Source: Gautieria morchelliformis (lineage: Eukaryota > Basidiomycota > Agaricomycetes > Gomphales > Gomphaceae). Taken from it: 64,000 nucleotides of DNA. Positions 1,907 to 47,619 of the stretch are shown one piece after another (position 1 is the stretch's first letter; each line of letters opens with the position of its first letter). The position numbers and the translations under genes are program-made. Below the pieces are notes generated by a model. That model ran no database searches. It was given only the letters and a program-made list of their open reading frames with translations, and was not told the DNA's origin. The stretch is from assembly GCA_015179125.1 (NCBI GenBank), contig WHVA01000004.1:310001-374000 (forward strand). Reading direction: 5' to 3'.

Positions 1907-1911
1907 CTGTA

Positions 1912-2401: not shown

Positions 2402-2406
2402 CTGTA

Positions 2407-24462: not shown

Positions 24463-27400
24463 TAAGTATATCGATCCTTGCAATTGCAATTACTGGACCG
24501 TGGGATGCTTCCTCAGGTCTACACCGACCAAAGACATCACGAATATCAGGGCCCCTCGAGACCAGTACGATATCCTCGCGCATGCACCGTCGGTGGAGGG
24601 ACATTTGCCACATCCGAAGATGGCTCGAGATGTGTTGTCGCTGGCAAGGACGGTTCGTTTCCAACGTCGTCATTCCGTGTGTATGTGGTGTTTGACATAC
24701 CCGATGCTATGACTTCGCTGTGTAGTACTTCGAATTCTATGCATAACTGACCCCATTCGCGCGCGGAAGTCGCCACCTCGACCCCACATTAGGCCGATTT
24801 CTAGCGGCAGCTCGACGGATGCCAGAGTATGCACTAATTCTGGCGGTGCGAGCATCGAAATTGGGACCAACGTGTGGACGGGTTCGGGGTTGAAGATTGA
24901 CAGTGCTCCGACCGATGTCATGTGGTAAGTATGGTGCGTGGGCGTGGGTTTCCTGCGTTACCCAGAAACTCACATTACATTAACACAACCAGAGACGAGG
25001 ATAAAGGAACACAAACGCGCAGTCAATAAGCTGGCTATCTCTCCATTCCTACCCTACCTCTTTGCGAGTGGCTCACAGGACAGGCACCTAACGCTTATGG
25101 GTAACGTTTACCCTCTGCCAAACTCTCAGTATTTATGACCTGCTTCGCGCTCTAGGACCTCCGGAGCCCGCCATCTTCCATTATAAAAGTGTACCATCCC
25201 ACGGGGATCCGCGCTCTAGCTCTATCTCCCGTTCCCTCAAATCCCATGACTGTCTGTACTGGTCTGGAGAGCGGTAATGTCGAGCGGTGGCTGGATTCAG
25301 TCGTACCATAGTCCACGTCGTGTTCATCATTGGAACTGCAGATGGGACCTCCGTAATCGAGCACTCCCCCTGGAACGAATCACGCTCGCGCACTCATCGT
25401 CCGTACTATCAACGGACTGGCAGCTACCCAGTATGAAAGAGACAGGCTTGGGGTGGCTCATAACTAGGGGGATGGATCGCCAAGTGAAGGTATTTGCTCA
25501 TGTGCTAATCACCACTGCGCAGTCTCAGTCTCACGCGTCGTTGCAGGTTTGGGACCTCTGCTTGCCGCCAGGGGCTTCCATTCCTGCAAATATGAACGAT
25601 CGCGACGCAATGCTACCGAATAAGAAGATATGCCCGAGTTCCTTCCGTACGCTTCACACGCCCTTCCCGGTGCGGAATGTGTGTTGGCGACCGGGCTACG
25701 ATTGCGAGGTTGCTGTGTGTATTTGAACTTATTCATCCGTCGTTTTCGGTTATGATTCAATGGCATACAGATCGTGTCTAACAACGAGTCTGAGAGCGAG
25801 ACGGTCGAGATTTGGGACATACGTCGCGCGTGGATCGGTAAGTGGGCTCTGGATGACGCGGAGGGCGGCATCACCGGTGCGCGGTGAAAATATTGAGTTG
25901 TGTTCGTGTGCAGACTTGCAAGGCAGACATCGCCTTTGCCGGCTCGCACAAACTGTGGGCGCAACACGTCAACGGCACGTTTGCACAGCACGACCCCCGG
26001 GAAAGCTTCAGACCTCTCTACGCAATTCCAAGAGTGGCCATGTCCTGGACTGCGTACGACAGTCTCGCTTTTGTCGCGAACAACTACCCAGTCGTCGAAC
26101 GGCCGTATGATGATGTGTAATCTTATATATATCACCTGCGTACGCTGTGTTATGTTTATGTCTACTCTTATTAGCAACCCATACGGTGTGGACGCGCTGG
26201 AAGAGCTATGCCTCCGCCCCAAAGCAACGAGTGATCCTGTTTATGTGCCCTATCAACAAACCCTTGGCGTCGAAGACATTCCTCTTTTTGACCACTCGGC
26301 CTTGGAACGCCTGGCAAAATCGTATGTCTTCGATGGAGACAGACTGAGGGTATGCGAGATTAACGCGGAGGTATGTAGGTCCTTATGTTTCACACTCTTC
26401 ACGGGGTTTGACGAGTTTACAGCGAGCAAGGGAGGCTGGACAGTTCCATGCTGCTCAGACGTGGCTGCTCCTCCTGTCCCAGCTTGTGGACTTGGAAGAT
26501 ACGTCACCGACTTCTGAATACTCCTTGAAGCCGTCGTCGCATATCGAGGCGCCGAGCCAGCTATCTCCCAAATCTGTGTCAGCCCTCCGTGGCCGCGACT
26601 TTTTCAATGGCCATATCGCCCCCGCTACAGTAACATCGGGGAGTACACGCATTGACACGCATACCATAGAAACAAGCCCGTTATCGTACCGCACTAGAGC
26701 TGATCAGACGACAAAAAGCACGCCTTCCTCCTCGTCGCCATCCCCCCGCTCGAAACCAAGTCCGATTTCCTTCCGTCTACCACTTCCTTTCTACCCGAAT
26801 TCCACGCACGATGCATCTATGTCATCCTCCACCAAGTTGAGCACGGTATCGCGCCGCGCCTCCGCCGCTCTTCCCGTCCTTCCTCCTACACACCGCCTCG
26901 CCATGCGTCGGGCCTCGATATCGACCCCCAGCACCGGTGGAGATCTGTCTGTCAATGAACAACCTGTGGCCTTTCAGCATGCCCATGTTGGCGAAGGCGC
27001 TCTGGACGACTCAGCGACGAGCAGTGGAGCTGAGGGTCAGCACCCGCGCAGACCAGTCTCACCCACGATATGGCAGGCTCACAGGGAGGACCGTAGGCCT
27101 CGTCATCCGCCGTTGCCAAACTACCCTGTGATCCAGCGCCGCCTTGCGGTCTCTTGTTGAAGGTTCCTGCGCCGCGTGAAGATTCTCCCGATGACCGTGA
27201 CGAAGAAGGCAGTGTCAGCGGCTATGACACCGATACGTCGACGAGTCTCGCTCGCCGCCGTCCCCGGCCTCGCCCTCTTCATCTGAATCTGCCGCGCGCA
27301 TCTCCCATTCTAAACTCTCACAAGCGTCGAATCAGAAACATGAACAGCCCGGTCAGGTGCCAGTGCCAGTGTTATCTGGACTCAGTGTTCAATGTCATCA

Positions 27401-28146
27401 AGCTCCTTCTGGCCTGGGAAGACTCAATCCCCAGCCCCAGAAATCATCAATGGTCATCGTGGGACAAGCATGGCCTATTCCCAGCGATCTCTTACCACGC
27501 AGAAATCACAGAATAGTATGCGAACCGTCACCGTAGCGCCTTCTAATACGGCGTCAGCCTATGCGCCATCCATAGACCGAGTCTCGTTACCAGATCCTGC
27601 AGCTGACGGTCGCATGGCCGTTGCCGAAGAGATAGATGTCCACACGCCGGCCGTCTCCTCATCATCACCGCGCTGTGTCTGCCACAGTACCCGCGCTTGG
27701 TCTATCGAATATGGATGACACGAGAAATATGCAGCCGAGCAGCCTCGTGCTAAGCATTACTTACCCTACCAGGCTGAGCGAGGAGCAGACGCAGCTGATC
27801 GTGGGGGATGAAGGGCATTTACGGCAGATTGGCTGGACGGCGCTGCGAGACTCCTCTCCTCGCCCTTGCTGCCGACACTGTCTTCGAGCAGGCCAAAGCG
27901 CGCCCCCAGGAACCATCGCCCACGCTGGCAATCCCCTCGCCCACGACGCCACATGAGGGGGACCCCTTCCTCGCCCTCATGACGCTCTCAAACGCGCTGT
28001 ACACGCACGCGTGCGTCCCCCCGCTCCTGCGCTTCCCCGTGTGCGTGGTGGCGGTGCGCTGTAGGATGGGCGAAGGTGAGCCGGTGATTGAACTTGTGCC
28101 GAACAAGCTGCGCATGGCGGGTTCTTGTCCGTGGTGCGTAGTCTGA
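24463..28146 (+). pseudogene. Rtc1/WDR24-like WD40 gene, left-arm copy
   Basis: The gene matches the WD40 part of Rtc1/WDR24, a subunit of the vacuolar SEA complex (GATOR2) in TORC1 nutrient signalling. Exons read GGTFATSEDGSRCVVAGKDG (about 24,590), NVWTGSGLKIDSAPTDVMW, EHKRAVNKLAISPFLPYLFA with SGSQDRHLTLM, DLRSPPSSIIKVYHPTGIRA, CTGLESGNVERW, VWDLCLPPGAS, TLHTPFPVRNVCWRP, EIWDIRRAW and HKLWAQHVNGTFAQHDPRE, then the post-propeller helix KSYVFDGDRLRVCEINAE and REAGQFHAAQTWLLL. Ser/Pro-rich linker follows to 27.7 kb, then LRQIGWTALRD. No C-terminal RING is recognisable. Compared with the right-arm copy, the exon encoding NKIVTSAMNGEIIYWDVNKS is deleted at about 24,926, and later frames shift, so this copy is not functional. 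Confidence 0.75.
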
Positions 28147-29848
28147 GCACAGGGAGCACGAGCGGGGGCGCACGGTTGGTGCACAGATGTCACCCTTCGC
28201 ATAGAATATTTTCAGCATTCAGAACATACTAACACTTGGTTTTTCCAATTACAACGGCGCTAGCCATTATTTGCACACTACATTACAGCCTGCCGAGTCA
28301 CTCATCCATCTTTTCTCCTCGCATCATCTCCTCGTCGCTTCCTTCGGGCTCGCTTCTCCTTGCCCATTTATTTCTTCCAGGTACAGTACCTCAGTAAGTG
28401 TTGTGTTGGGGGGGATGTGGGTGAGATAGAGTGTAAATACACCGAAGAACGAAGTCTGTCTTGTGCTTGAGCAGTTTCATAGTGAACTCAAAGTACTAAT
28501 TGCAATCTCACCATAGTCCCATTTCCACATCAGAATCAGCATGCGACTGATGAGCTGAAGACCGGTCGGCGGCCATGCAAGCATGCAAACCCGGCCTCGG
28601 CACCAGGTCGGGTTGCCATCAGAAAAATCTCGCAAATATCATAAAGGATTGTACTGATATTATAATATATGTCATCGCAATAAGTGCTGAAATGGCATAC
28701 CTGACATTGTGACGATGGTATACCCAAAGGTTATGTCCTTGTCACTGGGTACCATGGAGATACCATGTGGCCGTGGTACAACCATCCGCTCCCATGGGCT
28801 GCAACGATGATGTGTTGCAGCCACGATTATCACATCTGGTATTAGTTGACCAGGGAATCACAAGCCACCTGACATTTAGATAACTAAGACTGCACACCGC
28901 CTGACACCAAGATACCATCTGTAGCTCATAAACGGGCAATGGAAGATATATAAGATGCAGTAGCAGCTGTTACAAAATAGTACTGGGCCCTCATGGCCTA
29001 CTCAGAGGCCTCCAATTGCACCAGCATCTGCCCATACAGTGTCTCCTTCGGTTCAACATATTCATGTGCGGTGACAACGAGTCGTTCATATTGTTGCTTG
29101 TTGGCGCGAATCCTAGAATATGTCAGTATCAACAGAGCCCAGAGGAAGATGGGGACGGCTTACTGAGAATCAGCTTCAAAGAGACCATCATGAAGATAGT
29201 CTCAAATCAACGCCAAATTGCTATTTCCGAAATGACACGCCGGCCGGGAAAGAGGGTCATGTTTCCTATCATGAAGGCAACGAACGGTTAATGGATACCG
29301 ATTACATATTAAAGGGATGCAAACGGCTTCTTCTTATTGGCCGGGCAGTTGAGTGTAAACAGGGGGTCTGTGAGCAAGGTGGTCACCACGCTTGATGCGG
29401 CCGCAGCCCCACTCCCACCCCTCCATCCACATGGTCCTCATACGGATTATCCTCTATCTGCGCTGCGGCTTAAGGTACGGCAGCGCAGGTCTCTCCCTTA
29501 TCTCATACATGGCTGATGCAGCGATAGCACCCGTCCCAGTGCTGCTCGTACTATCCCCCGAAGCGGTCCGGTGCAGCACATGTTGCGACACGGCCGTGCT
29601 CTTGGCCAAATTCCACCCGTACGCGGAGTCGGCGCGGTTCGGAAGGTCATTCTCGTCATCCCTGTGAGTAGGTGTCGGCGACGCAAGAATTAAAACTAAA
29701 AATCAAAAAGAATGGGGCAGACGGCGAAAATAATAGAACATAAAGGTCCACACTCCTCCTCCACGGAATGCGCACACGAAAGGGGTTGCGCCGTACAGCA
29801 AGTGGGGACCGGCGCACGGAACGACGGAAGCAGCAGAAAAGGACATCA
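24463..29848 (+). repeat. Left arm of large inverted duplication, outer part
   Basis: Matches the reverse complement of 47,618 down to about 42,960, covering the Rtc1 copy and its 3' flank. Identity by eye is about 94% in a conserved exon and about 84% across an intron-rich stretch. A segment at 28,618-29,333 has no counterpart in the right arm. The arm is cut at 29,848 by the LINE and resumes at 36,418. Confidence 0.85.
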
Positions 29849-29860
29849 ATGGAAGCATCC
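28200..29860. other. Left-arm 3' flank with a 715-bp arm-specific segment
   Basis: 28,200-28,617 and 29,334-29,848 are shared with the right arm (about 43,870-43,510 and 43,500-42,950). Between them, 28,618-29,333 is AT-richer and found only here: either an insertion in this arm or a deletion in the other. No transposase, clear TIR or target duplication seen. The frame at 29,392-29,667 (YGSAGLSLISYMADAA...) is kept similar in both arms but resembles no family I know. Confidence 0.5.
29849..29860 (+). repeat. LINE target-site duplication, left
   Basis: ATGGAAGCATCC; pairs with 36,418-36,429. Confidence 0.93.
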
Positions 29861-30021
29861 GGAACTCCTTTTGCACTCCGACCACCACCATCGCCTGGGC
29901 GCACTTTCAGTTCTTCCCCTATTTTACTTTACTTCTCCTCTCCATACACACACCACTGCATCTACCTACGTACATACACACTCTGAGCGCCCTGCACACG
30001 CCTGCCACGAAATCCGGCCTC

Positions 30022-31938
30022 ATGTCGAACGACACGTCGGCTAGCGGGGCAAAAGGCAGGAACACGCCTACACAGCGCCCAGTCACGACACCGTCCATGG
30101 CACAGGCCAGGCTCGACGCACAGGGAAGAATCCAGCCTAGGGCAGCTGCGGGCCCTGCACGAGAGAAGCAGACAGAACCGACGAAAAGAAGCGAGAACGC
30201 GGCTGAGAAAAAGGCACAGGCGACCCGGGTGACCACCAGAGGGGCGGCGCCGGACCAGGAGGCACTCACAGGGGAGGAGATAAGGGTCTTACCGGGGCAG
30301 GAGATAGTGGATGGCGAAGCAGGTAAGCTCTACTTGGAACGTACCTTGCTGACGGTACCCGGCGCGCCCTGGACAGTCGGCGCGCTGTCCACCGCCATAT
30401 TACAGGTGACCCAGTATAAGGGACTACCGCGCCAAGCGATAAACGCGATGAGGTCCATCGCGTTCGTACTGGAGGAGGTGGAGGATGATGCCAGATATGA
30501 GAAGATCGTGAGCCAGGTCAAGGAGGGTCTCGCCGCGGAAGGAAACGTGCTATCAGCCAAGATTGCAGAGGCAACAGCTCTGATAGATAAAGCCACCGCT
30601 GCGGCTGAGACCTCGGCAAGACTCTCTCACCAAGTTACCGAGGACGCGGCCGCGGCGGTCCAGACGATCCAGTCGGTGTCAAATACGGTCGCTACCTCGG
30701 CGACCCAACTCAACGAGACGTCGACTACGTATAGAGACGCCGTATTGAAAGCAGCAGCGACACCGACATCGCAACACACACTGCCCGGCACCGTCACGCT
30801 TGATGCCAGAGTCCGGGCAAGGGAGGGCATCAAGCAAAGACAAGTGCTGGTGGATGCCACGAGCGCAGGAGAGCGCATCCTTGCTGACCTCGACGACATC
30901 GGGCTGGCCTTAAAAGCCAACGAGACCATAAGCGACCTGGACCCAGGGGGGGAAAGGCTGGTTGTCAGCGCGAGGCGGTTGGTCAACGGCGGGGTGCTGT
31001 ACGAGCTCAACACGGAGGAGGCGGCGAGGTGGCTCAACGAGGCGGGGAATAGGACCCGATTCACAGAGGCCCTAGCGCCCGACGCGAGGATGAAAACGAG
31101 GTCATTCCCGCTCGTGATCCAGTTCATACCACTGCACTTTGAGCCGGAAAGGGAGGGAGACCTGCGGGGCATAGAGGTGGTCAACAGGCTCCCGAGGGAT
31201 GCGATCAACAAAGCCAGGTGGATCAAGCCAAAGCAGCGTAGGGCAGCTAGCCAAACCTGCGGCCACGCCATCATCACGTTCGCCACGCCGGAAGCGGCCA
31301 ACAAAGCAATCACTGACGGACTTATAGTCTGTCAGAAGAGGGTTTACGCGGAAAAGTGCAGGAAAGAGCCCACCAGGTGCCTCAAATGTCAGGGGTGGAA
31401 TCACCTGTCATACGCGTGCCCACAGGAACACGACACCTGCGGCACCTGCGGGGGGAGGCACAAGACGTCCACTTGCGATCAGACCGGACGGCGGTGCGTT
31501 TCCTGCGGGACAGACAGCCATGCTAGCTGGTCCAGGGCTTGCCCGGTCTTCCTGAGCAAATGCGCGGAACTCGACTCTAGGTTGATTGAGAACCTAATGC
31601 CGTATTTCCCTACTGAAGAAGTGTGGACCCACGTCTCACAGCCCTCCAAAGCGTTGGCCCTTTTGCCCCCGCAGGCAGGGCAACAGGCCGCGCCACAGCA
31701 CAATGGGGGTTGGGAGACGGTCGCGAGACACACGGGCCGGCTCAGGCAAACGATACTCCCTTACGAACGGCGAGCTCCGGGGCCGGCAGCGGATAATCAC
31801 CTGCGAGCGAGTCCCTCACAGCCTGTGCGGCAGCATGGGAGCCCAACCACCTCTTCCAACAGCATCGCCCTGGGCCCCACCAATAGGTGGGGAGACACAG
31901 AAGGACACAACGGGCCGCCCTCCTCTGCCCTCCACTGA
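30022..31938 (+). CDS. LINE ORF1 protein with three zinc knuckles
   Basis: Open for 638 residues from the first ATG after the 5' UTR. The N-terminal 100 residues are basic and low-complexity; residues about 150-260 are Ala/Thr-rich and predicted helical or coiled (KATAAAETSARLSHQ, VQTIQSVSNTVATS). The C-terminal third carries three Cys/His knuckles in a row at about 450-510: CLKCQGWNHLSYAC, CGTCGGRHKTSTC and CVSCGTDSHASWSRAC. ORF1 proteins of this group bind element RNA in the ribonucleoprotein particle. The stop TGA (31,936-31,938) overlaps the ORF2 start as TGATG. No break was seen. Confidence 0.9.
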   Translation: MSNDTSASGAKGRNTPTQRPVTTPSMAQARLDAQGRIQPRAAAGPAREKQTEPTKRSENAAEKKAQATRVTTRGAAPDQEALTGEEIRVLPGQEIVDGEAGKLYLERTLLTVPGAPWTVGALSTAILQVTQYKGLPRQAINAMRSIAFVLEEVEDDARYEKIVSQVKEGLAAEGNVLSAKIAEATALIDKATAAAETSARLSHQVTEDAAAAVQTIQSVSNTVATSATQLNETSTTYRDAVLKAAATPTSQHTLPGTVTLDARVRAREGIKQRQVLVDATSAGERILADLDDIGLALKANETISDLDPGGERLVVSARRLVNGGVLYELNTEEAARWLNEAGNRTRFTEALAPDARMKTRSFPLVIQFIPLHFEPEREGDLRGIEVVNRLPRDAINKARWIKPKQRRAASQTCGHAIITFATPEAANKAITDGLIVCQKRVYAEKCRKEPTRCLKCQGWNHLSYACPQEHDTCGTCGGRHKTSTCDQTGRRCVSCGTDSHASWSRACPVFLSKCAELDSRLIENLMPYFPTEEVWTHVSQPSKALALLPPQAGQQAAPQHNGGWETVARHTGRLRQTILPYERRAPGPAADNHLRASPSQPVRQHGSPTTSSNSIALGPTNRWGDTEGHNGPPSSALH

Positions 31939-34900
31939 TGAACTATACGACGGGACCAACACCAACGAGGCTGAGGATCTATCAACAAAACCTGAACAAA
32001 TCTGACAAGGCCCAGTTCGACCTCGTCAATTCGGCCGTCCACAAGGAGTGGGATGTAATATTGCTTCAAGAGCCGTACATTGATGCGCTAGGAAACACCA
32101 AAGCGAATCACAACTGGCGCGTTCTTTATCCTTCCTCTCACCTAACTAACGATACCCCGAAGCGCTCGGTGATATTGGTAAACACGTCTCTAGATACTAA
32201 CAGGTGGTCACAGATATCGGTCAAAGGGACAAATGACGTCACGGCGATGCAGCTCAGACACCAACGGGGCAAGGTCACGATCTTCAACATCTACAACGAC
32301 TGTGACCACTCGGCGTCGCTGCGGATCGTCGACGACTACGTCAGCAAGGAGCGGCACAACATAATACAGAACGAGGCGGACTCGATGGTGTGGTGCGGGG
32401 ACTTCAATCGGCACCACCCCATGTGGGACGAGGAAAGGAACCATCACTTATTCACGGCTGAAGCGTCCAGGATGGCTGAGGAGTTAATTTCTATGGTGGC
32501 TGACTACAATATGGTGATGGCCCTCCCCAAACGCCTCCCAACCCTGCAGTCCATGTCCACCAAGAACTGGACAAGGGTTGACAATGTCTTTTGCACGGAC
32601 AACATTGTCGACTCCATCATCAGCTGCGACACCTCTCCCAGCAGGAGGGGGCCAGGCACCGACCACGTCCCTGTCCTCACAACCCTCGACATTGACGTAG
32701 AGATCAAGGGCCCGGAGCCCTTCCGCAACTTTAGAATGGTGGACTGGGGCGAATTCCGGGAGCAGCTGGCGGAGCAGCTAGAGGGAGTGCCGGATGCGAA
32801 AGAGCTGGAGAGCATAAGTGAGTACAACGAAATGGTCACCGCGCTGACGATCGCCATCCAGGACACCATCGCCATAGTGGTCCCGCTGTCGAAGCCAGTG
32901 CCGCACTCCCACAGGTGGTGGAGCAAGGAACTGACAGATCTCAAGAAGTCCAAGAACAGGCTAAACCACCTCTCCTACATCCACCGCGCAGTTGCCGACC
33001 ACCCGTCCCATGAAGAGCACAGGGAAATCACAGAGAGATATGGTAAGGCGATCAGCAAGGCTAAATCACAGCATTGGGCCGAATACCTGGAGGACCTCAA
33101 TGACGGGATGCTATGGACGGCGAACAAATACTTGGTCAACCCGGCTACGGACGGGGGCAGATCAAGGATCCCAACCCTGCAGGTGACCGGAGTCGACGGC
33201 ACTGCTAATGCGGCGGAAACCAATGAGGATAAGAGCGCAGCCCTCGCGGCAGCGTTCTTCCCGCCCAAGCCGTCTGAATCCCAAGTCCCGCCAAACCACC
33301 GGTACCCGAAACGCGTCACCCACAACTTCCAAATCCACGAGACGCAGCTGAGGCGACACCTGAACAAGCTAAAGCCCCATAAGGCGCCGGGCGACGACGG
33401 GATCCCGAACGTGGTCCTGAAGGAGTCCGCTGACCTGATCGCTGAGTATCTCCTGTGTATCTTCCGCGCGACATTCGCTCTGAACACGTACAGTGACAAT
33501 TGGAAGACCTGGATTACAGTCGTACTTCGGAAGCCAGGCAAAGCGAATTATGAGGTCCCAAAGTCCTACCGTCCAATCGCCCTGCTCAACACGATCGGGA
33601 AGCTCCTCACGGCGATAGTCGCCGAGGATATCGTGTACCTGACGGAAAAGCACGGCCTGCTCCCGAACGCTCACTTCGGCGGGAGACCTGGGAGGACGAC
33701 TACCGACTCTCTACATCTGGTGGTTAACAAAGTAAAAGGGGCATGGAGGAGAAAAAAGGTGGCAGTTATGCTCTTTTTGGACATCGAGGGAGCATTCCCG
33801 AACACTGTTACTGACCGTCTACTCCACAACATGAGGAAACGAAGGGTGCCCGAGACATACGTGGCGTTCGTGGAGCGGATGCTAGCGGGCAGGCGCACCA
33901 GGCTGAAGTTCGACGACTACTTATCAGACTGGGTGCCCATAGACAACGGGATAGGCCAAGGTGACCCCCTGTCTATGATACTCTACCTGTACTACAACGC
34001 GGACCTGGTAGAAGTGGCTACAGGGAAGGGGCGAGCGGCGGTGGCGTATGTGGACGACGCCAACCTGTATGCGGAAGGCGACACGTATGAGGAGGCATAT
34101 GAGGGCATTAGGGACATGCTCCTCAAGGAGGGCGGGGCAAGGGAGTGGACGCGCACTCACCAGTCCCGGTTCTAGAAAAACAAGTTCGCCATTATAGGCT
34201 TCTCATGTCGCAGAGTCCCCGACCCTGCACGACCATGCAAGACCCTGCGGGAGCCAAGGCCGAGCTTCATCTATGAGGACGTGACCATACAACCATCGTC
34301 GGCCCACAAGTTTCTGGGCGTGCTACTGGACGAGGAGCTGAGGTGGAACGAGCAGGCGGAGAAGGCGACAGCGAAGGCGGTAAAGTGGACTCTATTGGCA
34401 CGCAGGCTAACTAAACCATCTACAGGAGTCCGCGCAACCTACATGAGACAGCTCTACTGCGCAGTAGCCATCCCGAAGTTTACCTATGCCGCGGACGTGT
34501 GGTTCACGCCGATACAAAGGACGGAGGGACGAAAGAGGGCGACGGGATCGGTAAGGGTGGTGCGTAAGCTGACGTCGGTGCAGCGCCTCGCCACCATAGC
34601 GATCACTGGAGCGATGAGTACAACCGCCAACGACGTCCTAGAAGCGCACGCCAACGTGATCCCGATAGAGCTGCTCCTTCTCAGTGTGTGCTATAGGGCG
34701 ATCAGTCGAATGGCGACCCTCCCGAGGGCACACCCCCTACACCAGCCTCTCCGTACCTGCGCCCGTCGACTGGTTAAGAAGCACCCATCCCCGCTCCATG
34801 TGCTGACTCACATGTTCGACATCACCCCCGGAACATACGAGGAGATCCGACCCTTCGTGCACGCGCCGGACGCACCACAGCAATACACGACTGGGATAGC

Positions 34901-36429: not shown

Positions 36430-38470
36430 AGCGTCAAACTCCGAGTACAGAAGCATGGCGGCAAGTTGTCGATCACGAGGAAGAAGCGCAAGAAGAGTAC
36501 ATAGCCAGGAACCGAAGCCGAAGGAGCAACGCTAGGGACACGTGGCGCCGTGCGGCCAATTCATCTCTCAAGCGCCCGATGGGTCACGTGGGAGTAACCG
36601 TCGTCGCCCGGGAGATGCAGGACGTCTCACTCGCAACCGAATCCAGTATTGACGGTTAATGACGATTTACTGTGACGGCTCGAGGTGGGAACTTGAAGGA
36701 CACCACCGATAGCCTCGCTCGAGCGGAGAACGGATGGCTTGGCGGGTATGCAGGTTGGGGTGCGGGGACAACGCGCGAGGAGGTGCAGAGGTTGATAAAG
36801 GCAATCTGGTCAGCTAGACTGGTGGGGGACGGGGAATATGGGAGATGTGGTAGGGGCGTCGTCGGCGTCGGAAGGATGGGCTCCACGCGTGATAGAGGAG
36901 GGAATGCGCGGTGGAAGAGGTGGGACTGGCGGGAATGTGTGCTGGTAGGGTCGGGAGCGACGAGACCAGCTGACGGAGAGCGGGCTGGTTGGTTGGCTTC
37001 GGTAACTCCACGGTAGATCGCATTGTCCGGCCTTTCCAGAATGATTCTGTCTTGGACGTAGGCGTCGAGGGACTTTCTGTTTTTTCCCCGACTTTCCTTG
37101 GGTCAATGTCATCCTTACGTTGGCCAGAACGTCAACTCAAGAATATGGAGGAGGATGGAACATTTCAAATATCAGGTATCCGCCTCACCGAGGGCTTCCC
37201 TCCAAGTATGTGTCGAACGCAAGTTGTTTACGCTCAACACTATGGCCGAATACCTCAGAATCACGCTGGGTGGGTTAGGATGAGTGTGGGCTGAATTGAT
37301 TCAGGATCGACTCATTGGCTCCTTGACGCACTGCAGTGTCGATGTGTCATCCATCGTACTCATTAACTCAAGAGGTTTCGTCGGTCCTTCATCATTCGTG
37401 CGTGGCATTGTCTTACCGTTCCATCGTCCGATGTCGTACTCTCATCCTTCCATCTCATTCTCATCCAGTTGTCCTCTCATCTCATCGTCACACCCCGTCA
37501 TTCTCCCTTGTCTCAGAGTCCATGCGGGTGCGAGCGTGGGCGCTCGTCCATCCGAGTCGTCCCGCACCTCATGGCCTCACATTGTCCTCTCACCCTCTCG
37601 TTTCGTTGTCAAAACGCCATCACCATCACATCCTCTAGCTCCAGCGACACCCATTGGCACCATTTAACTCCCCTCAACTCCATGGGCCTACACAAACATG
37701 GTGACATAAAGACAGGCGGACGTAAAGCAGCCTTCAACGCCGTCGAGCTGGATACCAGGACGGGACGGAAGGTTTGGAGAGTGTGTGTGAGTGCGTCTAC
37801 TGCACCGCTGGCCGTCGACGCGTGCGAGGTTGCCAGCAAAGGACGCACTGCAGAATGCCATACTACGCCACGCCCGACCTGACAAGGCTGTTAGGCGAGA
37901 ACGCGAGATGGCTTTGGGACGCGAATATGCAAAGGGAGGACGCCCCCCCTGAAGGAACGCGGGACCCAAGCCACACCACGACACACCCGACGCATGGCGT
38001 CTGAGACAGAGGGTCTGATTGCCTTGCGTTCTACCGGTAGTCGTATGGTGGAGTGGGTGAAGGCGAGAGCAGTGCGTATATGGAGAGTAGTTGCGTGGTG
38101 GAACGGGAGGCAGAATGGGAAGCGGAATGGAGAGAGACAGGAAAGGAAAGAGAACGAGGGAACACCAGGAAAGGTGCAGTGCCAAGGGGCAGACCGTACC
38201 AGCTCAGGCACGCACACGCACACTGCCAGGGGATGGAAAATGGGAAGAGAGAACAACCGTGGAAGGTGGACGGAGAGTCTCAGGACAGATATACTGTAGG
38301 GTCGATAGAACGGCTCTAGCAACACACGGCCACTGAGAATCGCCAGTTACGCACAATGATGACGTGCCGCATCTCGACCCCGATCAGGCACGCGCCACCC
38401 GATCACGATCATGCCACCTGCACGCAATTACGCCACGCGATCACGATCACGCGGGGATCATCCATCACGC
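36430..38470 (+). repeat. Left arm of inverted duplication, inner part
   Basis: Continues the left arm after the LINE. It matches the reverse complement of about 42,950 to 40,960. Frames shared by both arms include LPKPTNQPALRQLVSSLP and RWPERQLKNMEE. Similarity fades near 38,470, where about 2.2 kb without counterpart begins. No known gene recognised in it. Confidence 0.8.
36656..36886 (-). CDS. Short ORF conserved in both arms, left copy
   Basis: 76-residue frame with the core ADQIAFINLCTSSR and SVVSFKFPPRAV. The right-arm counterpart (42,478-42,705, +) is 75 residues with the same start and stop, and the two differ by one whole codon (TPTTPLP versus TPTPLP), so the frame is kept across an indel. 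This hints at real coding sequence, perhaps one exon of a larger gene; no family recognised. The frame VELPKPTNQPALRQLVSSLP lies just upstream on the same strand. Confidence 0.3.
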   Translation of the reverse strand: MEPILPTPTTPLPHLPYSPSPTSLADQIAFINLCTSSRVVPAPQPAYPPSHPFSARARLSVVSFKFPPRAVTVNRH

Positions 38471-38673
38471 CACATTTTCAACGTGTGGAAGTAGGGTGCC
38501 GAGCACTCAGTATATATATATCTCGGCTACTCACGCTCGGTGATATAAGAAGAAGCATTTCTGGGTCCCACACCCGGTGACCCGGATCGTCTCGTCCTCG
38601 GATCTCGAGACGATGCGCTGTCTGGAGAGAACGCTACCGAGTAGACACCTGATGGATCATACGTCTCCTCGCT

Positions 38674-38990
38674 CATGGACAAAAAAGGGTTGCGCCGTGC
38701 ACAAAGTGGGGACCGGCGCTATAAGTCTATAACCTGCACACGGAAGTACGGAACAACAGAAAAGGCAATCAACGGAAGCATCCAGCGCCAAGCTCCGATT
38801 GGCAACAGGCAAGTTGCCAAGATCGGGAGGAAAAGCGCAAGAAGTGACGTAGCCAGGAACCCGAAGCCAGGCACCCGAAGCCAGGAACCCGAAGCCAGGA
38901 ACCCGAAGCCGAAGGAACGCAGTAGCAGCGCTCGCGACACGTGCCCGGCAGCGCACAATTCATCTCTCAAGTGCCGGATGGGTAGTACAC
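38674..38990 (+). repeat. Third copy of a 300-bp unit found in both arms
   Basis: Matches 29,766-29,860 plus 36,430-36,600 (left arm, either side of the LINE) and the reverse complement of about 43,015-42,790 (right arm). Shared blocks include GGTTGCGCCGT, GTGGGGACCGGCGC, GGAAGCATCCAGCG and CAATTCATCTCTCAAG. It lacks the LINE. A third, independently placed copy means the unit is itself repetitive; ends and type are unclear. Confidence 0.65.
38853..38908 (+). repeat. 14-bp minisatellite, four units
   Basis: CCAGGAACCCGAAG repeated four times (one unit with A to C), inside the third copy of the 300-bp unit. The two arm copies have only one such unit, so this expansion is local. Confidence 0.85.
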
Positions 38991-40800
38991 ATCTCATCGG
39001 GACAGCTTAGCTTGGGGACCTGTGCCGTGGGTATATAGCAGTGAGACATTTAGCAAAAATCTTCGGGAGTCAACTTAACTTCACCCCCATCGGTCTACAT
39101 GGGTTGATCCTGATACCGGGGCGCCGCCATTAGAGCGCACGTTTTAGCTTGGGGAGCTGCGACGCAATGGCTGTGTTACGCACGGAGGCTATCATCTTCG
39201 CGTGCCTGACTCATGCATGCCAGATAAACGTCTTGACTGGGCCATTATGGTATGTCCTTTTCACCAGACGTATTCGCGCTGGCGCTAGCAACAGCCTCCT
39301 TTGCGCTGACCTCGTCGCGGATGGTCGATAGCCTACTATGTCAGAAAACACCTGTAATATTACAATATTTGATAAAAATTATTTGTTGGTATACATAAAG
39401 ATTCGAAGCTAACTGTGAATGCGAAGAGCCTCGGACAGGTGTCGACGTGGGGCTCCTTGACCTCTGGATACTCCAACTAGCTACTTAATTTCAAAAGTTC
39501 CATGTAGCCTCAAATGGAACCCTGTTTTAGAATCCGAGGATGCGGCCTGTCTAACGTTTGAGCGGTCAGTTGTTATATTCGGTTCACTCCTATTCGGAGT
39601 TCTAGAGAGCCGATCTATCTAGGGCCTTGACAAGTATGTACATGCAGCCTCTCAGAGGCATTGTAGCATTTATAAACCAACCCCTTGAACGCAATGGCTC
39701 TTTGTGGCGACACAGGACTGCTGGACTAGGTCAGTCGATGTGCGTCATACTAAAGTCCTGAGTGTTTTGATTTACGCTCACCGCACAACGTCCTGATCTA
39801 GTAGATATCGAACACGAAGTTTTCATTTCGATCCCTCAGGCTTGTGGGTATCATAACTACTGCGCTGAATTCATGGTCGAATCTTACAAACCCTGTGTCT
39901 TGCAGCCGGAACAATCCATGTGCTCAGTGGATTCCCAACCATCCAGTGAATGTCTTTGGCGTATTTCCCACCTACCACCGTCCCAATGTTTGACCCTGGC
40001 CTCCCATTGCTCAGGGGCGACTAGGATAATTGTCTCCAGGACAGAAGCAAGAACGAGATCCGCATATGGAATTCGTGCCAACAGGCGTGATAGGTTCTGC
40101 ACTACGAGTGGCCTCATTGTGCACTGAATACTTGGCGCCAGATGCGTCCCTCACGCGTTTCATGATGAGCGCTGGCGACACATCGGAATGAGGTTATGAG
40201 TGCGCATCAGGTAAAAGGCAAGGAGAAACACACCTCGGTGCTATGTATGTTCCTCTACCGCTGCCTGAAATTCCCTCCACCGCCTAGAAGTCCCTATCAA
40301 TAATAGGACGTGACTATGTGATGGCTTCGATTCAGGACTCCGCAGACCATTGTGCGCGATGGACCGTCGGTCAGGAGAGGGTTGCATGTCTGATGTACTG
40401 TCGTACTGTCGATGTCCTGCCTGCCCGTATGGTGCGTGTTTGTCAACATCTCTGCCATGGAAGGTCAGCACCATGAATGTTCTTCGTATACCATCGTTAC
40501 AACCTCGCACAGATCAAGGCACAGGGTCACTTCAGGATACCGACCCTTACATAATTCACCGGTGCGTACCTAACCGTTATACCGCCACGTGTGATAAGTC
40601 GCAACCGAATCGAAGGTAAGTGCGGCACCACGCGCTGCCGGGTGCCGAGAATAGAAACAAGGGATTCGAAGATCGGAGCAGGCGCGCGCTTCTCACGATG
40701 AGTGCTTGCTTCAGGGCTTCTGCTTCCCAAATTGATGCATGCCTTGTGGCGTCGCCAGCGAAGCGGCCTGCGCGCTTGACGTGAATCGACCCTAAATGGG

Positions 40801-40912
40801 TATATCATCAATATCTGATCCACGGTCGATCGATCACTTCGCTCAGGCGCAGTTTATATCATGATCGTGATCGAAGTGATCGATCGACCGTGGATCAGAT
40901 ATTGATGATATA
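40801..40912. repeat. Perfect 41-bp hairpin at the axis of the inverted duplication
   Basis: 40,801-40,841 and 40,872-40,912 are exact reverse complements (inner ends GATCACTTCG / CGAAGTGATC), with a 30-nt loop. The similarity continues outward for about 30 bp with a few mismatches, and the larger arms follow. It marks the symmetry centre. Confidence 0.92.
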
Positions 40913-42477
40913 CCAATTTAGGTGCGATTCATGTCAATTTGGGAAGCAGAAGCGTGCGAAGCGTATGTAATTGGCTTCGCGTGGCGTGATCGTGATCGCG
41001 TGGCGCGTGCCTGATCTGGTCGTGATGCGCCACGTCATCGAGCGTAAATGGCGATTTTCAATAGCCGCCCCTCCGACCATAGATTGAATCTGTCATGAGC
41101 CACTCTTCGTCCACCTTCCACCCTCTTCCCATTTTGGGGACCCTGGTAGTGTGCGTGTGCGATTGTTCTGCCTGAGCTGGTACCGTCTACCTCTTGGAAC
41201 TCCACCTTTCCTGTTGTTCCCTCGTTCTGGTTTCCTTCCTGTCTCCCTCCATGCCGCTTCCCGCTCTGCCTCCTGTTCCATCACACAAGTCCTCTCCATA
41301 TACGCACTACTCTCGTCTTCACCCACTCCTCCACCATACGGCTACCGGTAGAACGTAAGGCCATCAGACCATCTGACTCAGAACGCCATGCGTCGGGTGT
41401 GTCGTGGTGTGGCTTGGGTCGCGCGTTCCTTCAGGCGGAGCGTCCTCCCTTTGCATATTCGCGTCCCAATGCCATCTCGCGTTCTCGCGTAACAGCCTTG
41501 TCAGGTCGGGTGTGGCGTAGCATGGCATTCTGGAGTGCGTCCGTTCCTGGCAACCTCGCACGCGTCGACGGCCAGCGGCGCAGTAGAAGCTCTCACCCAC
41601 ACTTTCCAATCCTTGCGTCCCGTCCTGGTATCCAGCTCAACTGCGTCGAAGGCTGCTGCACGTCCGCCTGTCTTTATGTCACCATGTTTGTGTAGGCCCT
41701 TGGAGTTGGGGGGAGTTAAATGGTGCCGATGAGTGTCGCCGGAGCCGAGGATGTGATGTTGAAGAGGGTGGGAGAATGGGACGAAACGGTGAGAGGACAA
41801 CACGAGCCAATGAGGAGTGGGACGACACGCTCGCACCCGCATGGACTCTGAGACAAGGGAGAATGGCGGGTGGGGACGACCAGATGAGAGGACGACGGGA
41901 TGGGGATGAGATGGAAGGATGTGAGAATCACCTGGGACGAAGAAACGGTAAGACAATGCCACGCACGAACGATGAAGGACCGACGAAACCTCTTGAGTTA
42001 ATGAGTACGATGGATGACACATCGACACTGCAGTGCGTCAAGGAGCCAATGAGTCAATCCTGAATCAATCCAGCCCACACTCATCCTAACCCACCCGGCG
42101 TGAGTCTGAGGTATTCGGCCATAGTGTTGAGCGTAAACAACTTGCGTTCGACACATACTTGGAGGGAAGCCCTCGGTGAGGCGGATACCTGATATTTGAA
42201 ATGTTTCACCCTCCTCCATATTCTTGAGTTGACGTTCTGGCCAACGTAAGGATGACATTGACCCAAGGAAAGTCGGGGAAAAACCAGAAAGTCCCTCGAC
42301 GCCTACGTCCAAGACAGAATCATTCTTGAAAGGCCGGACAATGCGATCTACCGTGGAGTTACCGAAGCCAACCAACCAGCCCGCTCTCCGTCAGCTGGTC
42401 TCGTCGCTCCCGACCCCACCAGCACACATTCCCGCCAGTCCCACCTCTTCCACCGCGTATTCCCTCCTCTATCACGC

Positions 42478-42705
42478 GTGGAGCCCATCCTTCCGACGCC
42501 GACGCCCCTACCACATCTCCCATATTCCCCGTCTCCCGCCACCCTCGCTGAGCAGATTGCCTTTATCAACCTCCGCACCTCCTCGCGCGCTGTGCCCGCA
42601 CCGCAACCTGCATACCCGCCCAGCCATCCGTTTTCGGCTCGAGCGAGGGTATCGGTGGTGTCCTTCAAGTTCCCACCTCGAGCCGTCGCAGTAAATCGTC
42701 GTTGA
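42478..42705 (+). CDS. Short ORF conserved in both arms, right copy
   Basis: 75 residues with ATLAEQIAFINLRTSSR and VSVVSFKFPPRAVAVNRR-stop. Counterpart of 36,656-36,886 on the other arm; see that entry. No known family. Confidence 0.3.
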   Translation: MEPILPTPTPLPHLPYSPSPATLAEQIAFINLRTSSRAVPAPQPAYPPSHPFSARARVSVVSFKFPPRAVAVNRR

Positions 42706-43939
42706 CCGTCAATACCGGGGATTCGGTTGCGAGTGAGACGTCCTGCGTCTCCCACGTGACGACGGTTTCTCCCACGTGACCCATCGGGCGCTTGAGAGAT
42801 GAATTGGCCGCACTTCGGCTTCGGTTCCTGGCTATGTACTCTTCTTGCGCTTCTTCCTCGCGATCGACAACTTGCCGCCGTCCCTGCGATGCTTCTGTAC
42901 TCGGCGTTTGGCGCTGGATGCTTCCCTTGATTGCCTTTTCTGCTGCTTCCGTTCCATGCGCCGGTGCTACCTCCGGTCCCCGCTTGCTGTACGGCGCAAC
43001 CCCTTTCGTGTGCGCATTCCGTGGAGGAGGGGTGTGGAGACGTTTATGTTCTATTATTTTCGCCGTCTGCCATTCTTTTCGATTTTTAGTTTGAATTCTT
43101 GCTCCTCTCCACGCACACCAGATAGTCGCTGACACCTACTCACAGGGATGACAAGAATGCGCTTCCAAAACCGCGCAGACTCGGCGGACAGGTCGATTTT
43201 GGCCAAGAGCACGGCCGTGTCACAACGTGTGCTGCATCGGACCGCCTCGGGAGAGAGTACGAGCAGCACAGGGACGGGTGCCATCGCTGCATCAGCCATG
43301 TATGAGACAAGGGAGAGCCCTGCGCTGCCGTACCTTAAGCCACAGCGCAGATAGAGGAGAACGCGGATGAGGATCTTGTGAGTGGAGGGGCTGGAGTGGG
43401 GATGCAGCCGCCCCAAGCGTGGTGACCACCTTGCTCACAGACAAAAGGTGGGTCGCCTGTGTACGCCCAACTGCCCAATAAGGCAACCGGACCTGCTGCC
43501 GAGTCCGGGTTTGCATGTTTGCATGGCCGCCGACCGGTCTTTAGCTACCGGTCGCATGCTGATGGTGATTTTGAAGTGGGACCCTGGTGAGATTGCAATT
43601 TAGTACTTTGGGTTCACTATGAAACTGCTCAAGCACAAGACAGACTTCGTTCTTCGGTGTATTTACACTCTATCTCACCCACATCCCGGCCAACACACCG
43701 CTTACTGAGGGACTGTACCTGGAAGAAATAAGTGGGCAAGGAGAAGCGAGCGCGAAGGGAGCGACGAGGAGATGATGCGAGAAGAAACGAAGGGTGAGTG
43801 GCTCGGCACAGGCTGTAGTGGAGTCTGTGTACATAATCGCTACCGCCGTTGTAATTGGAAGAACCAAGTGTCAGTATGTTCTCAATGCTGAAAAGAGTCT
43901 ATGCGAAGAGGAACACAGCTCGTCCCGCACAAGTTCAAT

Positions 43940-46900
43940 CACCGGCTCACCTTCGCCCATCCTACACGCGCCGCCACCACGCACACGGGGAATCGCAGGA
44001 GCGGGGGCACGCACGCGCGCGTGTACAGCGCGTTTGCGAGCGTCGTGAGGGCGAGGAAGGGGTCCCCTCATGTGGCGTCGTGAGCGTGGGGTTTGCCAGC
44101 GTGGGCGATGGTTCCTGGGGGCGCGCTTTGGCCTACTCGAAGACGGTGTCGGCAGCAAGGGCGGGGAAAAGCGTCTCGCAGCGCCTTCCAGCCAATCTGC
44201 CGCAAATGCGCTTCATCCTCCACGATCTGCCGCGTCTGCTCCTCGCTCAGCCTGGTCGGGTAAGTAATGTTTGGCACGAGGCCGCTCGTCCGCATATTTC
44301 TCGTGTCATCCATATTCGATAGACCAAGCGCGGGTACTGTGGCAGACACAGCGCGGTGATGATGAGGAGACGGCCGGAGTGTGGACATCTCTTCGGCAAC
44401 AGCCATGCGACCATCTGCTGCGGGATCTGGCAACGAGACTCGGTCTATAGACCGACGCCGTATCAGAAGGCGCTACGGTGACGGTTCGCATACTATTCTG
44501 TGATTTCTGCGAGGTAAGAGATCGCCGGGAATAGGCCATGCTTGTCCCACGATGACCAGATAACACTGGCACCGGCACCTGACCGGGTTACTCATGTTTC
44601 TGATTCGACGCTTGTGAGAGTTTAGAACGGGAGATGCGCGCGGCAGATTCAGATGAAGAGGGCGAGGCCGGGGACGGCGGCGAGCGAGACTCGTCCGACG
44701 TATCGGCGCCATATCCGCTGACACTGCCTTCTTCGTCACGTTCATCAGGAGAATCTTCACGCGGCGCAGGAACCTTCGACAAGAGACTGCGAGGCGGCGC
44801 TGGATCACAGGGTTGTTCGGCTATGGCGGACGACGAGGCCTGCGGTCCTCCTTGTGAGCCTGTCATGTCGTGGGTGAGACTGTTCTGCGCGGGTGCTGAC
44901 CCCTCAGATCCACTGCTCGACTCTGAGTCGTCCAGAGCGCCTTCGCCAAAATGGGCATGCTGAAAGGCCACAGGTTGTTCATTGACAGACAGATCCCCGC
45001 CGGTGCTGGGAGTCGATATCGAGGCCCGACGCATGGGGAGGCGGTGTGTAGGAGGAAGGACGGGAAGAGCGGCGGAGGCGCGGCGCGATACCGTGCGCAA
45101 CTTAGTGGAGGATGACATAGATGGATCGTGCGACGAATTCGGGGAGAAAGGACGTGACAGACGGAGGAATGTGGACTTGATTTCGAGCGGGGGGATGGCG
45201 ATGAGAAGGAAGGCGTGCTTTTTTTTCGTCTGATCAGCTCTAGTACGGTACGATAACGGGCTTGTTTCTATGGGATGCGTGTCAATGCGTGTACTCCCTG
45301 ATGTAACCGTAGCGGGAGCGGTATGGCTATTGAAAAAAGTCGCGGCCACGGAGGGAAGATGCTAACACAGGCGTTGGAGACAGCCGGCTCAGTGCCTCTA
45401 TATGCGACGACGGCTTCAAGGAGTATTCAGAAGTCGGCGACGTATCTTCCAAGTTCACGAGCTGGGAAAGGAGCAGCAGCCACGTCTAAGCAGCATGGAA
45501 CTGTCAGCCTCCCTTGCCGCTGCAGACTCGTTCAAAACCCGGTTAAGAATATGAAAGATAAGGACCTAGCTCCGCGTTAATCTCGCATACTCGTAGTCTG
45601 TCTCCATCGAAGACATACGACTTTGCCAGGCGTTCGAAGGCCGAGTGGTCAAAAAGAGGAATGTCTTCCACGCCAAGGGTTTGTTGATAGGGGACGTACA
45701 CAGGATCACTCGTTGCTTTGGGGCGAAGTCATAGCTCTTGCAGCGTGTCCACACCGTATGGGTTGCTAATAAGAGCGACATAAACATAGCACAGCGTGCG
45801 TGGGCGATATATATAAGCTCACACATCATCATACGGCAGCTCGACGACTGGCTGGTTCTTGGCAGCAAATGCGAGACTGCCGTACGCAGTCCAGGACATG
45901 GCCACTCTTGGAATGGCGTCGAGCGGTCTGAAGCTCTCCCGGAGGTCGTGCTGTGCAAACGTGCCGCTGACGTGTTGCGCCCACAGTTTGTGCGAGCCGG
46001 CAAAGGCGATGTCTGCCTTGCAAGTCTGCACACGAACACAACTGAATATTTTCACCGCGCACCGGTGATGCCGCCCTCCACGTCATCCAGAGCCCACTTA
46101 CCGATCCACGCGCGACGTATGTCCCAAATCTCGACCGTCTCGCTCTCAGACTCGTTGTTAGACACGATCTGTATACCATTGAATCATAACTGAAAACGAC
46201 GGATGAGTAAGCTCAATCCACACGGCAACCTCGCAATCGTAGCGCGGTCGCCAACACACATTCCGCACCGGGAAGGGCGTGTGAAGCGTACGGAAGGAAC
46301 TCGGGCCCATCTTCTTATTCAGTAGCATCGTGTCGCGATCGCTCATATGTGCGGGAATGGAAGCCCCTGGCGGCAAGCAAAGGTCCCAAACCTGCAACGA
46401 CGCGTGAGACTCAGACTGCGCAGTGCTGATTAGTTACAGGAGTAAATATCTTTATTTGGCGATCCATCCCACTCGTTACGAGCCACCCCAGGCCTGTCTC
46501 TTCCATACTGGGAAACTGCCAGTCCATTGATAGTACGGACGATGAGTGCGCGAGCGTGATTCGTTCCAGGGGGAGCGCTCTATTACGGAGGACCCGTCTA
46601 CAGTTCCAACGATGAACACGACGTGGACTATATATAGTATGACTGAATTCACCCACCGCTGAATATTGCCGCTCTCGAGACCAGTACAGACGATCATGGG
46701 ATGGGAACGGGAGATAGAGCTAGAGCGCAAATCCCCGTGGGGTGGTATACTTTCATAACGGAAGGCGGCGGACTCCGGAGGTCCTACAGCGCGAAGCAGG
46801 TGATGATACTGAGAGCTTGGCAGAGGGTAAAACGTTACCCATAGGCATAGGTGCCCGACCTGTGAGCCACTAGCAAAGAGGTAGGGCAGAAATGGAGAGA

Positions 46901-47600
46901 TAGCTAGCTTATTGACTGTGCGTTTGTGTTCCTTTATCCTCGTCTCTGGTTGTGTAATTTGAGTGTCTCTAGGTTACCCAGGACGAAACCCACGGCCACG
47001 CACCATACTTGGACCCCGACTTGTTAACATCCCAATAAATAATCTCTCCATTCATCGCACTAGTCACAATCTTGTTGTCGAACGCTTCGTGCGTGTCACG
47101 CTGGGACGCGTCGCAAGCTGATGAAGAGCGAAACACTCACTTCCGCGTGCCCACATGTCGGTCGGAGCACTGTCAATCTTCAGCCCGGTCAGCCCGGAAC
47201 CCCTCCACACGTTGGTCTCAATTTCTAAGCTCGCACTGCCTGAATTAGTGCATACTCTGGCGTCCGTCGGGCTGCCGCTAGAAAGCGGCCTAATATGGGG
47301 TCGAGATGGCGACTTCCGCGCGCGAATGGGGTCATTTATGCGTAGAATTCGAAGTACTACATAGGGAGGTCATAGCATCAGGTATGTCAAACACCACATA
47401 TACACGGAATCACGACGTCGGAAACGAACAAACCGTCCGTCCCAGCGAGAACACATCTCGAGCCATCTTCGGATGTAGCAAATGCTCCTCAACCGACAGT
47501 GCATGCCCAAGGATATCGTACTGTTCTCGAGGGGCCCTGATATTCGTGATGTCTTTGGTCGGTGTAGACCTGAGGTAGCATCGCACGGTCGAGTAATTGC
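43940..47600 (-). pseudogene. Rtc1/WDR24-like WD40 gene, right-arm copy
   Basis: Same gene as at 24.5-28.1 kb, on the opposite strand. It keeps the exon missing in the left copy: FDNKIVTSAMNGEIIYWDVN lies at about 47,075-47,020 with a GTGCGT donor. Also visible are TGLESGNIQRWV, VWDLCLPPGASIPAHM, LHTPFPVRNVCWRP, HKLWAQHVSGTFAQHD, DYEYARLTRS-adjacent helix and the Ser/Pro-rich linker with SEEQTRQIVEDEAHLRQIGW near 44,230. The N-terminal exon carries a TGA where the left copy has GGA (TVG-stop-GAFATSEDGSR, about 47,498). So this copy is also probably dead, broken at a different place. A functional Rtc1 gene would have to lie elsewhere. Confidence 0.7.
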
Positions 47601-47619
47601 AAGGATCGAGATACTTATG

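What the first reader, a model, noticed from the sequence alone, without database searches (positions are those of the whole stretch)
24463..47618. A 23-kb inverted duplication carrying two dead Rtc1/WDR24-like genes
The sequence 24.46-38.47 kb (minus the LINE) is repeated in inverted orientation at 47.62-40.91 kb. Divergence by eye is about 6% in a conserved exon and about 16% in an intron-containing stretch. This is too diverged for an assembly fold-back and implies an old event. The exon/intron contrast suggests the copies were constrained for some time before dying.
Basis: partly seen in the sequence, partly recalled or inferred. Interest (0 to 1): 0.75.

Follow-up and report, generated by a model that had tools for sequence, protein, structure and literature searches.

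The report
Repeat family carrying truncated Rtc1 genes
The two mirror-image stretches look not like one folded-over duplication but like two patchwork copies of a repeat family that carries the broken front half of a nutrient-sensing gene, some copies of it beside an immune-receptor-like gene, while one intact original sits elsewhere in this fungal genome.

Summary
The inverted match is real: window 24463-38431 (minus a 6.56-kb LINE) against 47617-40967, at 84-91% identity in six main blocks. It is not one 23-kb inverted duplication. The Rtc1 segment occurs in 33 copies (635 bp or more) on 17 contigs of the host genome. The arms are not sisters (AU p 6e-9, 1.9e-6, 4e-47) and are unequally truncated. 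Contig C232 holds the same inverted pair with the same spacer and no LINE.

An intact gene lies on C804: 15 exons, 1201 aa, best PDB match WDR24 (E 1.2e-44); its C-terminal half is single-copy. It stands 131 bp from, and divergent to, a NACHT-WD40 (NLR-like) gene; the window's right copy keeps that arrangement. All 19 non-host places that reach the truncation point share one junction, implying one truncated founder. None of 22 copies checked is frame-intact.

Private mutations ignore codon position; shared ones are mostly synonymous or intronic. The exon/intron contrast thus reflects constrained source lineages mixed by gene conversion, not constraint on these two copies. How the copies spread is inferred; one Helitron family was tested and its end is absent.

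The parts
24450..39214 (+). Left copy of the dispersed repeat (positions 749-8217 of the reference unit in L012), interrupted by the LINE; it runs about 780 bp further inward than the right copy
24505..27848 (+). Left truncated Rtc1/WDR24 pseudogene (start codon position to fusion junction); 99% identical to the C588:45348 copy; 6 frameshifts and 1 stop against the intact gene
29861..36417 (+). LINE inserted in the left copy; endonuclease/RT ORF; 12-bp target-site duplication 29849-29860 / 36418-36429; absent at the equivalent place on C232
39215..40966 (.). Spacer between the arms; its part 39215-40500 that was compared is 98% identical on C232, and C232 continues through the rest
40776..40937 (.). 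162-bp palindrome (140 of 162 positions self-complementary) about 30 bp from the inner end of the right copy; role unknown
40967..48329 (-). Right copy of the dispersed repeat (reference unit positions 1-7465); it runs about 710 bp further outward than the left copy
44176..47581 (-). Right truncated Rtc1/WDR24 pseudogene (start codon position to fusion junction); 7 frameshifts and 4 stops against the intact gene
42700..44175 (-). Non-Rtc1 sequence fused to the truncated Rtc1; also occurs at places without an Rtc1 match (C970, C14)
49158..54359 (+). NACHT (NPHP3_N)-WD40 NLR-like gene divergent to the right Rtc1 copy (start codon assigned by eye); aligned parts 86% identical to the gene divergent to the intact Rtc1 on C804

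Best explanation
The arms are two mosaic copies, lying in opposite orientation, of a dispersed and partly tandem repeat family with a unit of about 8.3 kb. Shown: the family carries the 5' half of an Rtc1/WDR24 gene (start codon to codons GWKALR), cut at one shared point and fused to other sequence, so it most likely descends from one truncated founder. Shown: an intact full-length Rtc1 sits at C804, 131 bp from and divergent to a NACHT-WD40 NLR-like gene, and some truncated copies, including the window's right copy, have the same divergent neighbour. Shown: copies are mosaics of each other, and each copy's private changes are neutral. Inferred: an ancestral block [NLR gene, then 5' half of Rtc1] was amplified by ectopic (non-allelic) recombination and segmental duplication in repeat-rich clusters, Rtc1 riding along as a passenger. 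The inverted pair was one such arrangement; it was copied as a block to two places (C448, the window, and C232), then received the LINE in the window copy only, while gene conversion scrambled the Rtc1 half.
For: 33 copies of the Rtc1 segment of 635-977 bp, intact gene included; 17 contigs, 21 same-contig pairs against 0.48 expected, maximum 8 in 20000 draws. Head-to-tail units in L012, L015, L017. Arms not sisters: AU p 6e-9 (exon segment), 1.9e-6 (Rtc1 half) and 4e-47 (3' half). In the 3' half left is sister to C232-left and right to C232-right; C232 has the spacer and an uninterrupted LINE site. One junction at all 19 non-host places, 18 of the 22 non-host rows, that reach it. Intact gene of 1201 aa whose C-terminal half gives one match in the genome. 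Divergent NLR-like gene at C804; 6 of 33 copies, C804 included, have an NLR 5' end divergent within 3 kb, counting only the 40 scored of 331 NLR candidates. Private variants flat, shared ones biased to third positions and introns. Near-site incompatibility 0.208 against 0.325 +/- 0.006 shuffled, 0 of 500 as low.
Against: The copying mechanism was not observed. 27 of 33 copies show no divergent NLR 5' end among the 40 NLR matches scored; three copies (L015-L017) have part of the NLR 5' region upstream in the other orientation; the closest NLR relatives on C508 and C684 (98-99%) are on contigs without a match in the Rtc1 search. So the two also move apart. The wider clade left + C588 + right is not rejected on the exon segment (p 0.24), though it is on the Rtc1 half (p 4e-6). 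Passenger status does not by itself explain why shared variants are so strongly synonymous when the copies already share the truncation.
Confidence: 0.68

Rival explanations
1. A transposon (for example a non-autonomous Helitron or another gene-capturing DNA element) picked up the Rtc1 half and other fragments and spread them (transduplication).
For: The unit is a chimaera of Rtc1 and other sequence; another small repeat joins an Rtc1 exon to actin sequence in three places; the genome has 150 scored Helitron_like_N matches of 865 candidates; fungal precedents exist (PMC6710886).
Against: The last 200 bp of one autonomous Helitron family (three copies compared) have no match beyond a 13-bp chance hit in the window and the other loci fetched by then. 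My own hairpin-CTRR scan of the window is no evidence: it missed the known terminus when tested, and a relaxed version that finds it gives 18 and 21 sites on the two strands. Copy ends differ, copies are clustered, introns are retained, so not a retrocopy.
Confidence: 0.22
2. One in-situ inverted duplication, whose sister relationship was later erased by gene conversion from other family members.
For: Mosaicism is strong and the pair is compact; the exon-only tree cannot exclude the clade left + C588 + right (p 0.24).
Against: In the 3' half, where both window arms match the C232 arms one to one, left and right were already distinct lineages; the arms end at different unit positions; 31 further copies exist.
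Confidence: 0.07
3. The truncated Rtc1 copies were for a time functional genes (WD40 propeller without the RING domain), for example as partners of the divergent NLR-like genes, and died recently.
For: Shared variants show a codon-position signature of purifying selection (cp1 0.088, cp2 0.084, cp3 0.179, introns 0.186) although the copies share the truncation. Private decay is of similar size in all copies (about 0.5-3% per site class), which a single gene sampled at different times would not predict (inference). The third-position excess does not fall off towards the junction.
Against: 0 of 22 copies checked is frame-intact now; divergence just after the junction (0.062) equals that at first and second positions (0.064, 0.057), so the post-fusion age may be younger than the synonymous diversity; gene conversion from functional Rtc1 alleles would give the same pattern.
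Confidence: 0.1
4. Assembly artefact (fold-back, or unmerged haplotypes joined head to head).
For: The assembly is fragmented (1113 contigs) and the region is repetitive.
Against: Divergence near 10%; the same pair and spacer appear on another contig; the C-terminal half of Rtc1 gives one match only, so the assembly does not seem to hold two alleles of that gene.
Confidence: 0.03

Closest known systems
Transduplication of histone H3 in Mycosphaerellaceae (PMC6710886: abstract and first part of the discussion read) and in Pyrenophora (PMC3538342: search listing only)
   Same: A housekeeping gene fragment is amplified to many copies in a fungus; in Mycosphaerellaceae the copies are inactive except the original.
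   Different: There a hAT transposon carries a transcript copy and RIP inactivates the copies. Here introns are retained, no transposon ends were found, C>T is not raised at CpA, and NLR-like genes are neighbours of some copies.
DNA methyltransferase amplification in Zymoseptoria tritici (as told in the abstract of PMC6710886)
   Same: One gene amplified to tens of copies.
   Different: There the copies including the original were inactivated; here an intact Rtc1 remains.
NACHT-WD40 (HNWD-type) NLR families of fungi (PMC4986451, PMC1805685; search listings only; the HNWD comparison is recalled)
   Same: NLR-like genes with many near-identical WD40 repeats in a large family.
   Different: Here a fragment of an unrelated housekeeping gene travels with some members.
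Helitrons with captured genes in Pleurotus ostreatus (PMC4289320; passages read)
   Same: A fungus with many Helitrons and mobilised gene sequences.
   Different: The end of the Helitron family tested here was not found at the Rtc1 copies; [quoted passage not shown]

Membership tests
Rtc1/WDR24 (SEA2, GATOR2 subunit) | WD40 propeller with sequence match to WDR24/Rtc1 | tested here: met
   Hand-joined query from the arms: WDR24 E 1.5e-9; C804 protein: WDR24 E 1.2e-44, Rtc1 (8adl) 7.3e-12
Rtc1/WDR24 (SEA2, GATOR2 subunit) | C-terminal RING-like zinc domain | tested here: not met
   Absent from the window copies, which are cut at GWKALR. The C804 gene has it: zf-RING_16 E 5e-6, 26.5 bits, just under the cut-off of 27.4
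Rtc1/WDR24 (SEA2, GATOR2 subunit) | Open reading frame | tested here: not met
   0 of 22 non-host rows without a frameshift; left 6 frameshifts and 1 stop, right 7 and 4
Single inverted duplication | The two arms are each other's closest relatives | tested here: not met
   AU p 6e-9, 1.9e-6, 4e-47
Helitron (non-autonomous) | 3' end shared with an autonomous family | tested here: inconclusive
   The terminus of one autonomous family (three copies) was not found in the window or the other loci held; other families not tested; the pattern scan failed its positive control
TIR DNA transposon / transduplication | Terminal inverted repeats and target-site duplication at unit ends | tested here: inconclusive
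   Junctions compared: variable ends, no shared repeat or duplication seen; the ends of copies fetched only as short pieces were not seen
NLR-linked segmental duplication | NLR-like gene divergent to Rtc1 at source and at copies | tested here: inconclusive
   Met at C804 and the window's right copy, and at 6 of 33 copies in all, C804 included, by position among the 40 scored NLR matches; not met at the other 27 in that capped list
LINE (insert at 29861-36417) | Endonuclease and reverse transcriptase, A-rich 3' end, target-site duplication | tested here: met
   PF14529 and PF00078; 12-bp duplication and A-run

The most novel reading that the evidence does not exclude
Truncated Rtc1 copies (WD40 propeller without the RING domain) were, until recently, selected partners of the divergently transcribed NLR-like genes: a fungal paired-receptor or decoy system built from a TORC1-pathway subunit (GATOR2/SEACAT), amplified with the receptors and now decaying. 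The mostly synonymous shared variation among copies that carry the same truncation would be the trace of that period.
Probability: 0.08. Interest if true: 0.8.

Novelty: new member of a known kind. Interest (0 to 1): 0.42.

Why it matters
It turns an apparent two-copy inverted duplication into a 33-copy family and points to its source. It shows a housekeeping-gene fragment that in part travels with an immune-receptor-like gene family and is mixed by ectopic recombination. It separates neutral decay (private variants) from ancestral constraint (shared variants) in one data set, and leaves a sharp open question: where did the mostly synonymous shared variation of an already truncated family come from?

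Tried and rejected
Transposon ends: compared 5' and 3' junctions of the copies; the apparent 5' end at 47617 is followed outward by a fast-varying GC-rich stretch that other copies share in part, and 3' ends differ. Helitron carriage: defined the 3' end of one autonomous family from three copies and searched for its last 200 bp; not found. A first fetch lay beyond the element and shared nothing. A hairpin-CTRR pattern scan found no site, but it also missed the known terminus when tested; a relaxed version that finds the terminus gives 18 and 21 window sites, so the scan is discarded. Subtelomeric location: TTAGGG x4 occurs only at C60, so it could not be tested. The PF17120 search of the genome gave no hit; the C804 domain scores just under the cut-off and has an intron in it. 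RIP: Ts 396, Tv 342; C>T at CpA 26/239, CpC 29/259, CpT 24/219, CpG 40/281, G>A after C 58/281, so no CpA preference. Selection on the truncated family: inconclusive, because downstream segments also exist outside the family. Pfam on ORFs of the unit outside Rtc1: nothing above cut-off. Literature: no listed title or abstract start reports amplification of Rtc1/WDR24 fragments; only these searches stand behind that. Confidence in the best explanation was lowered from 0.70 to 0.68, and the transposon rival raised from 0.20 to 0.22, after the scan failed its control.
Full report
Observation. Self-comparison of the window confirms the inverted match at the stated coordinates, at 84-91% identity in the six main blocks. 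The left arm carries a LINE at 29861-36417 with a 12-bp target-site duplication. Between the arms the differences in the Rtc1 part are 64/909 first, 43/909 second and 95/906 third codon positions and 56/501 intron positions.

It is a family. A search of the window's own genome (122 Mb, 1113 contigs; the window is C448:310001-374000) with 25500-26350 gave 42 matches, 40 of 41 candidates scored. From the loci fetched, 33 copies covering 635-977 bp of a 976-bp segment, the intact gene included, were extracted and aligned; five loci with only short pieces were left out. They lie on 17 contigs, with 21 same-contig pairs against 0.48 expected (maximum 8 in 20000 draws; the other contigs were taken as equal in size and C448 as 374 kb). 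The reference unit (L012:341-8700, its start chosen by me) is about 8.3 kb long and occurs head to tail in L012, L015 and L017. The window's right copy spans unit positions 1-7465 and the left copy 749-8217, so the arms are unequal.

The arms are not sisters. The left arm is 99% identical to a copy on C588 over 24448-28748. A clade of left and right is rejected on the exon segment (p 6e-9), on the Rtc1 half (p 1.9e-6) and on the 3' half (p 4e-47). Against this, the wider clade left + C588 + right, which I named after seeing the matches, is not rejected on the exon segment (p 0.24), but it is on the Rtc1 half (p 4e-6). On the 3' half left pairs with C232-left and right with C232-right, both starred. 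C232 also has the spacer at 98% over the part compared and an uninterrupted LINE site. So the inverted pair most likely existed before the C448 and C232 blocks parted, and the LINE came later. In the Rtc1 half the C232 and window arms no longer pair, which fits recombination: near informative sites are incompatible in 0.208 of pairs against 0.325 +/- 0.006 in shuffles, 0 of 500 as low, and the closest relative of a copy changes from stretch to stretch. The C804 gene has no 300-bp stretch above 97% to any copy compared, so recent exchange with it is not seen.

The source. L010 (C804) holds an intact Rtc1/WDR24: 15 exons, 1201 aa, introns of 48-74 bp, one with a GC donor (splice sites placed by eye). 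PDB matches are WDR24 at 1.2e-44 and Rtc1 (8adl) at 7.3e-12. The C-terminal zinc domain is recognised at E 5e-6, just below the Pfam cut-off. A DNA search with the C-terminal half finds one place only, C804. Downstream lies a Ras-family GTPase. Upstream, with 131 bp between the start codons (start codon of the NLR assigned by eye), lies a gene on the other strand whose aligned parts are 86% identical to the NACHT-WD40 gene at 50190-54790 of the window (Pfam was run on the window's gene only). In the window that gene is likewise divergent to the right Rtc1 copy, 1.6 kb away. By position, 6 of the 33 copies (C448, C588, C804, C821, C823, C270) have an NLR 5' end divergent within 3 kb, counting only the 40 scored of 331 NLR candidates. 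The other 27 do not in that list; three (L015-L017) have part of the NLR region in the other orientation; two close NLR relatives (C508, C684) are on contigs without an Rtc1 match. Linkage is partial.

The truncation. The junction after codons GWKALR (GCTGCGA^GA..) is the same at all 19 non-host places that reach it, in 18 of the 22 non-host rows; the other four (L019, L022, L026, L028) do not reach it. L023 is rearranged soon after it. The fused sequence also occurs at places without an Rtc1 match: in C970 the match starts at the junction and other sequence continues upstream. One truncated founder is the simplest reading. Against the C804 gene, none of 22 copies is free of frameshifts. In the 976-bp segment, 8 of 33 rows (the C804 gene included, one partial) have neither frameshift nor stop.

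Constraint. Over 16 non-redundant copies, private variants per site are 0.226, 0.208, 0.226 (codon positions) and 0.198 (introns), leaving out those equal to the C804 state (3, 4, 11 and 0 more). Shared variants that differ from C804 are 0.088, 0.084, 0.179 and 0.186; those equal to it add 5, 3, 42 and 16. A 26-row count on the segment gives the same contrast (0.270, 0.274, 0.284, 0.302 private; 0.147, 0.155, 0.272, 0.302 shared). Its exact source is open. Divergence next to the fusion (0.062) equals that at first and second positions (0.064, 0.057), while third positions and introns reach 0.114 and 0.101. That fits extra synonymous variation brought in by conversion from functional Rtc1 alleles. 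But segments further downstream are at 0.083-0.104, and the third-position excess does not fall off towards the junction, though it is nearly absent in the first 340 bp, so selection on truncated genes is not excluded.

Mechanism. Inferred: ectopic recombination and segmental duplication among repeat-rich clusters, with Rtc1 as passenger. Helitrons are abundant (150 matches scored of 865 candidates); the 3' end of the one family tested has no match, beyond a 13-bp chance hit, in the window and the other loci held then. A pattern scan for other Helitron ends failed its positive control and is discarded. No shared terminal repeats or target-site duplications were seen at the ends that were fetched. 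C>T changes show no CpA preference, so no RIP-like spectrum.

Known parallels. Amplified and inactivated housekeeping-gene fragments are known in fungi (PMC6710886: abstract and first part of the discussion read; PMC3538342: listing only). They differ in being carried by a hAT transposon as a transcript copy and, in the first, in being inactivated by RIP. That the organism is a basidiomycete is my inference from intron size and gene content; no call named it.

Noticed in passing
window 52526-54295: A run of near-identical 129-bp WD40 repeats (14 WD40 stretches by Pfam; 83-89% identity between shifted copies) in the NACHT-WD40 gene; the related gene on C804 shows about three.
   Followed up: partly
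L042, L043, L044 (C451, C382, C226): A separate dispersed repeat (copies 96-97% alike) joins one Rtc1 exon to actin coding sequence (Pfam Actin E 2.7e-38 in L044).
   Followed up: partly
L040, L041 (C102, C1049): Two loci 94-96% alike that carry rearranged Rtc1 exon pieces.
   Followed up: no
window 40776-40937: A 162-bp palindrome beside the inner end of the right copy, within the stretch shared with C232; role unknown.
   Followed up: no
window 4801-9276: LTR retrotransposon (Copia-type by recall) with two 224-bp ends 97.8% identical.
   Followed up: no
window 59687-62977: LTR retrotransposon polyprotein with integrase and chromodomain matches in a long open frame.
   Followed up: no
genome G000: Helitron-rich genome: 150 Helitron_like_N matches scored of 865 candidates, many in long open frames; one family ends in a hairpin and CTAG.
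   Followed up: partly
window 1911-2401 and 59533-60013: A 491-bp inverted match of 94% between the two ends of the window, also found near the C588 copy (L009:9005-9494).
   Followed up: no
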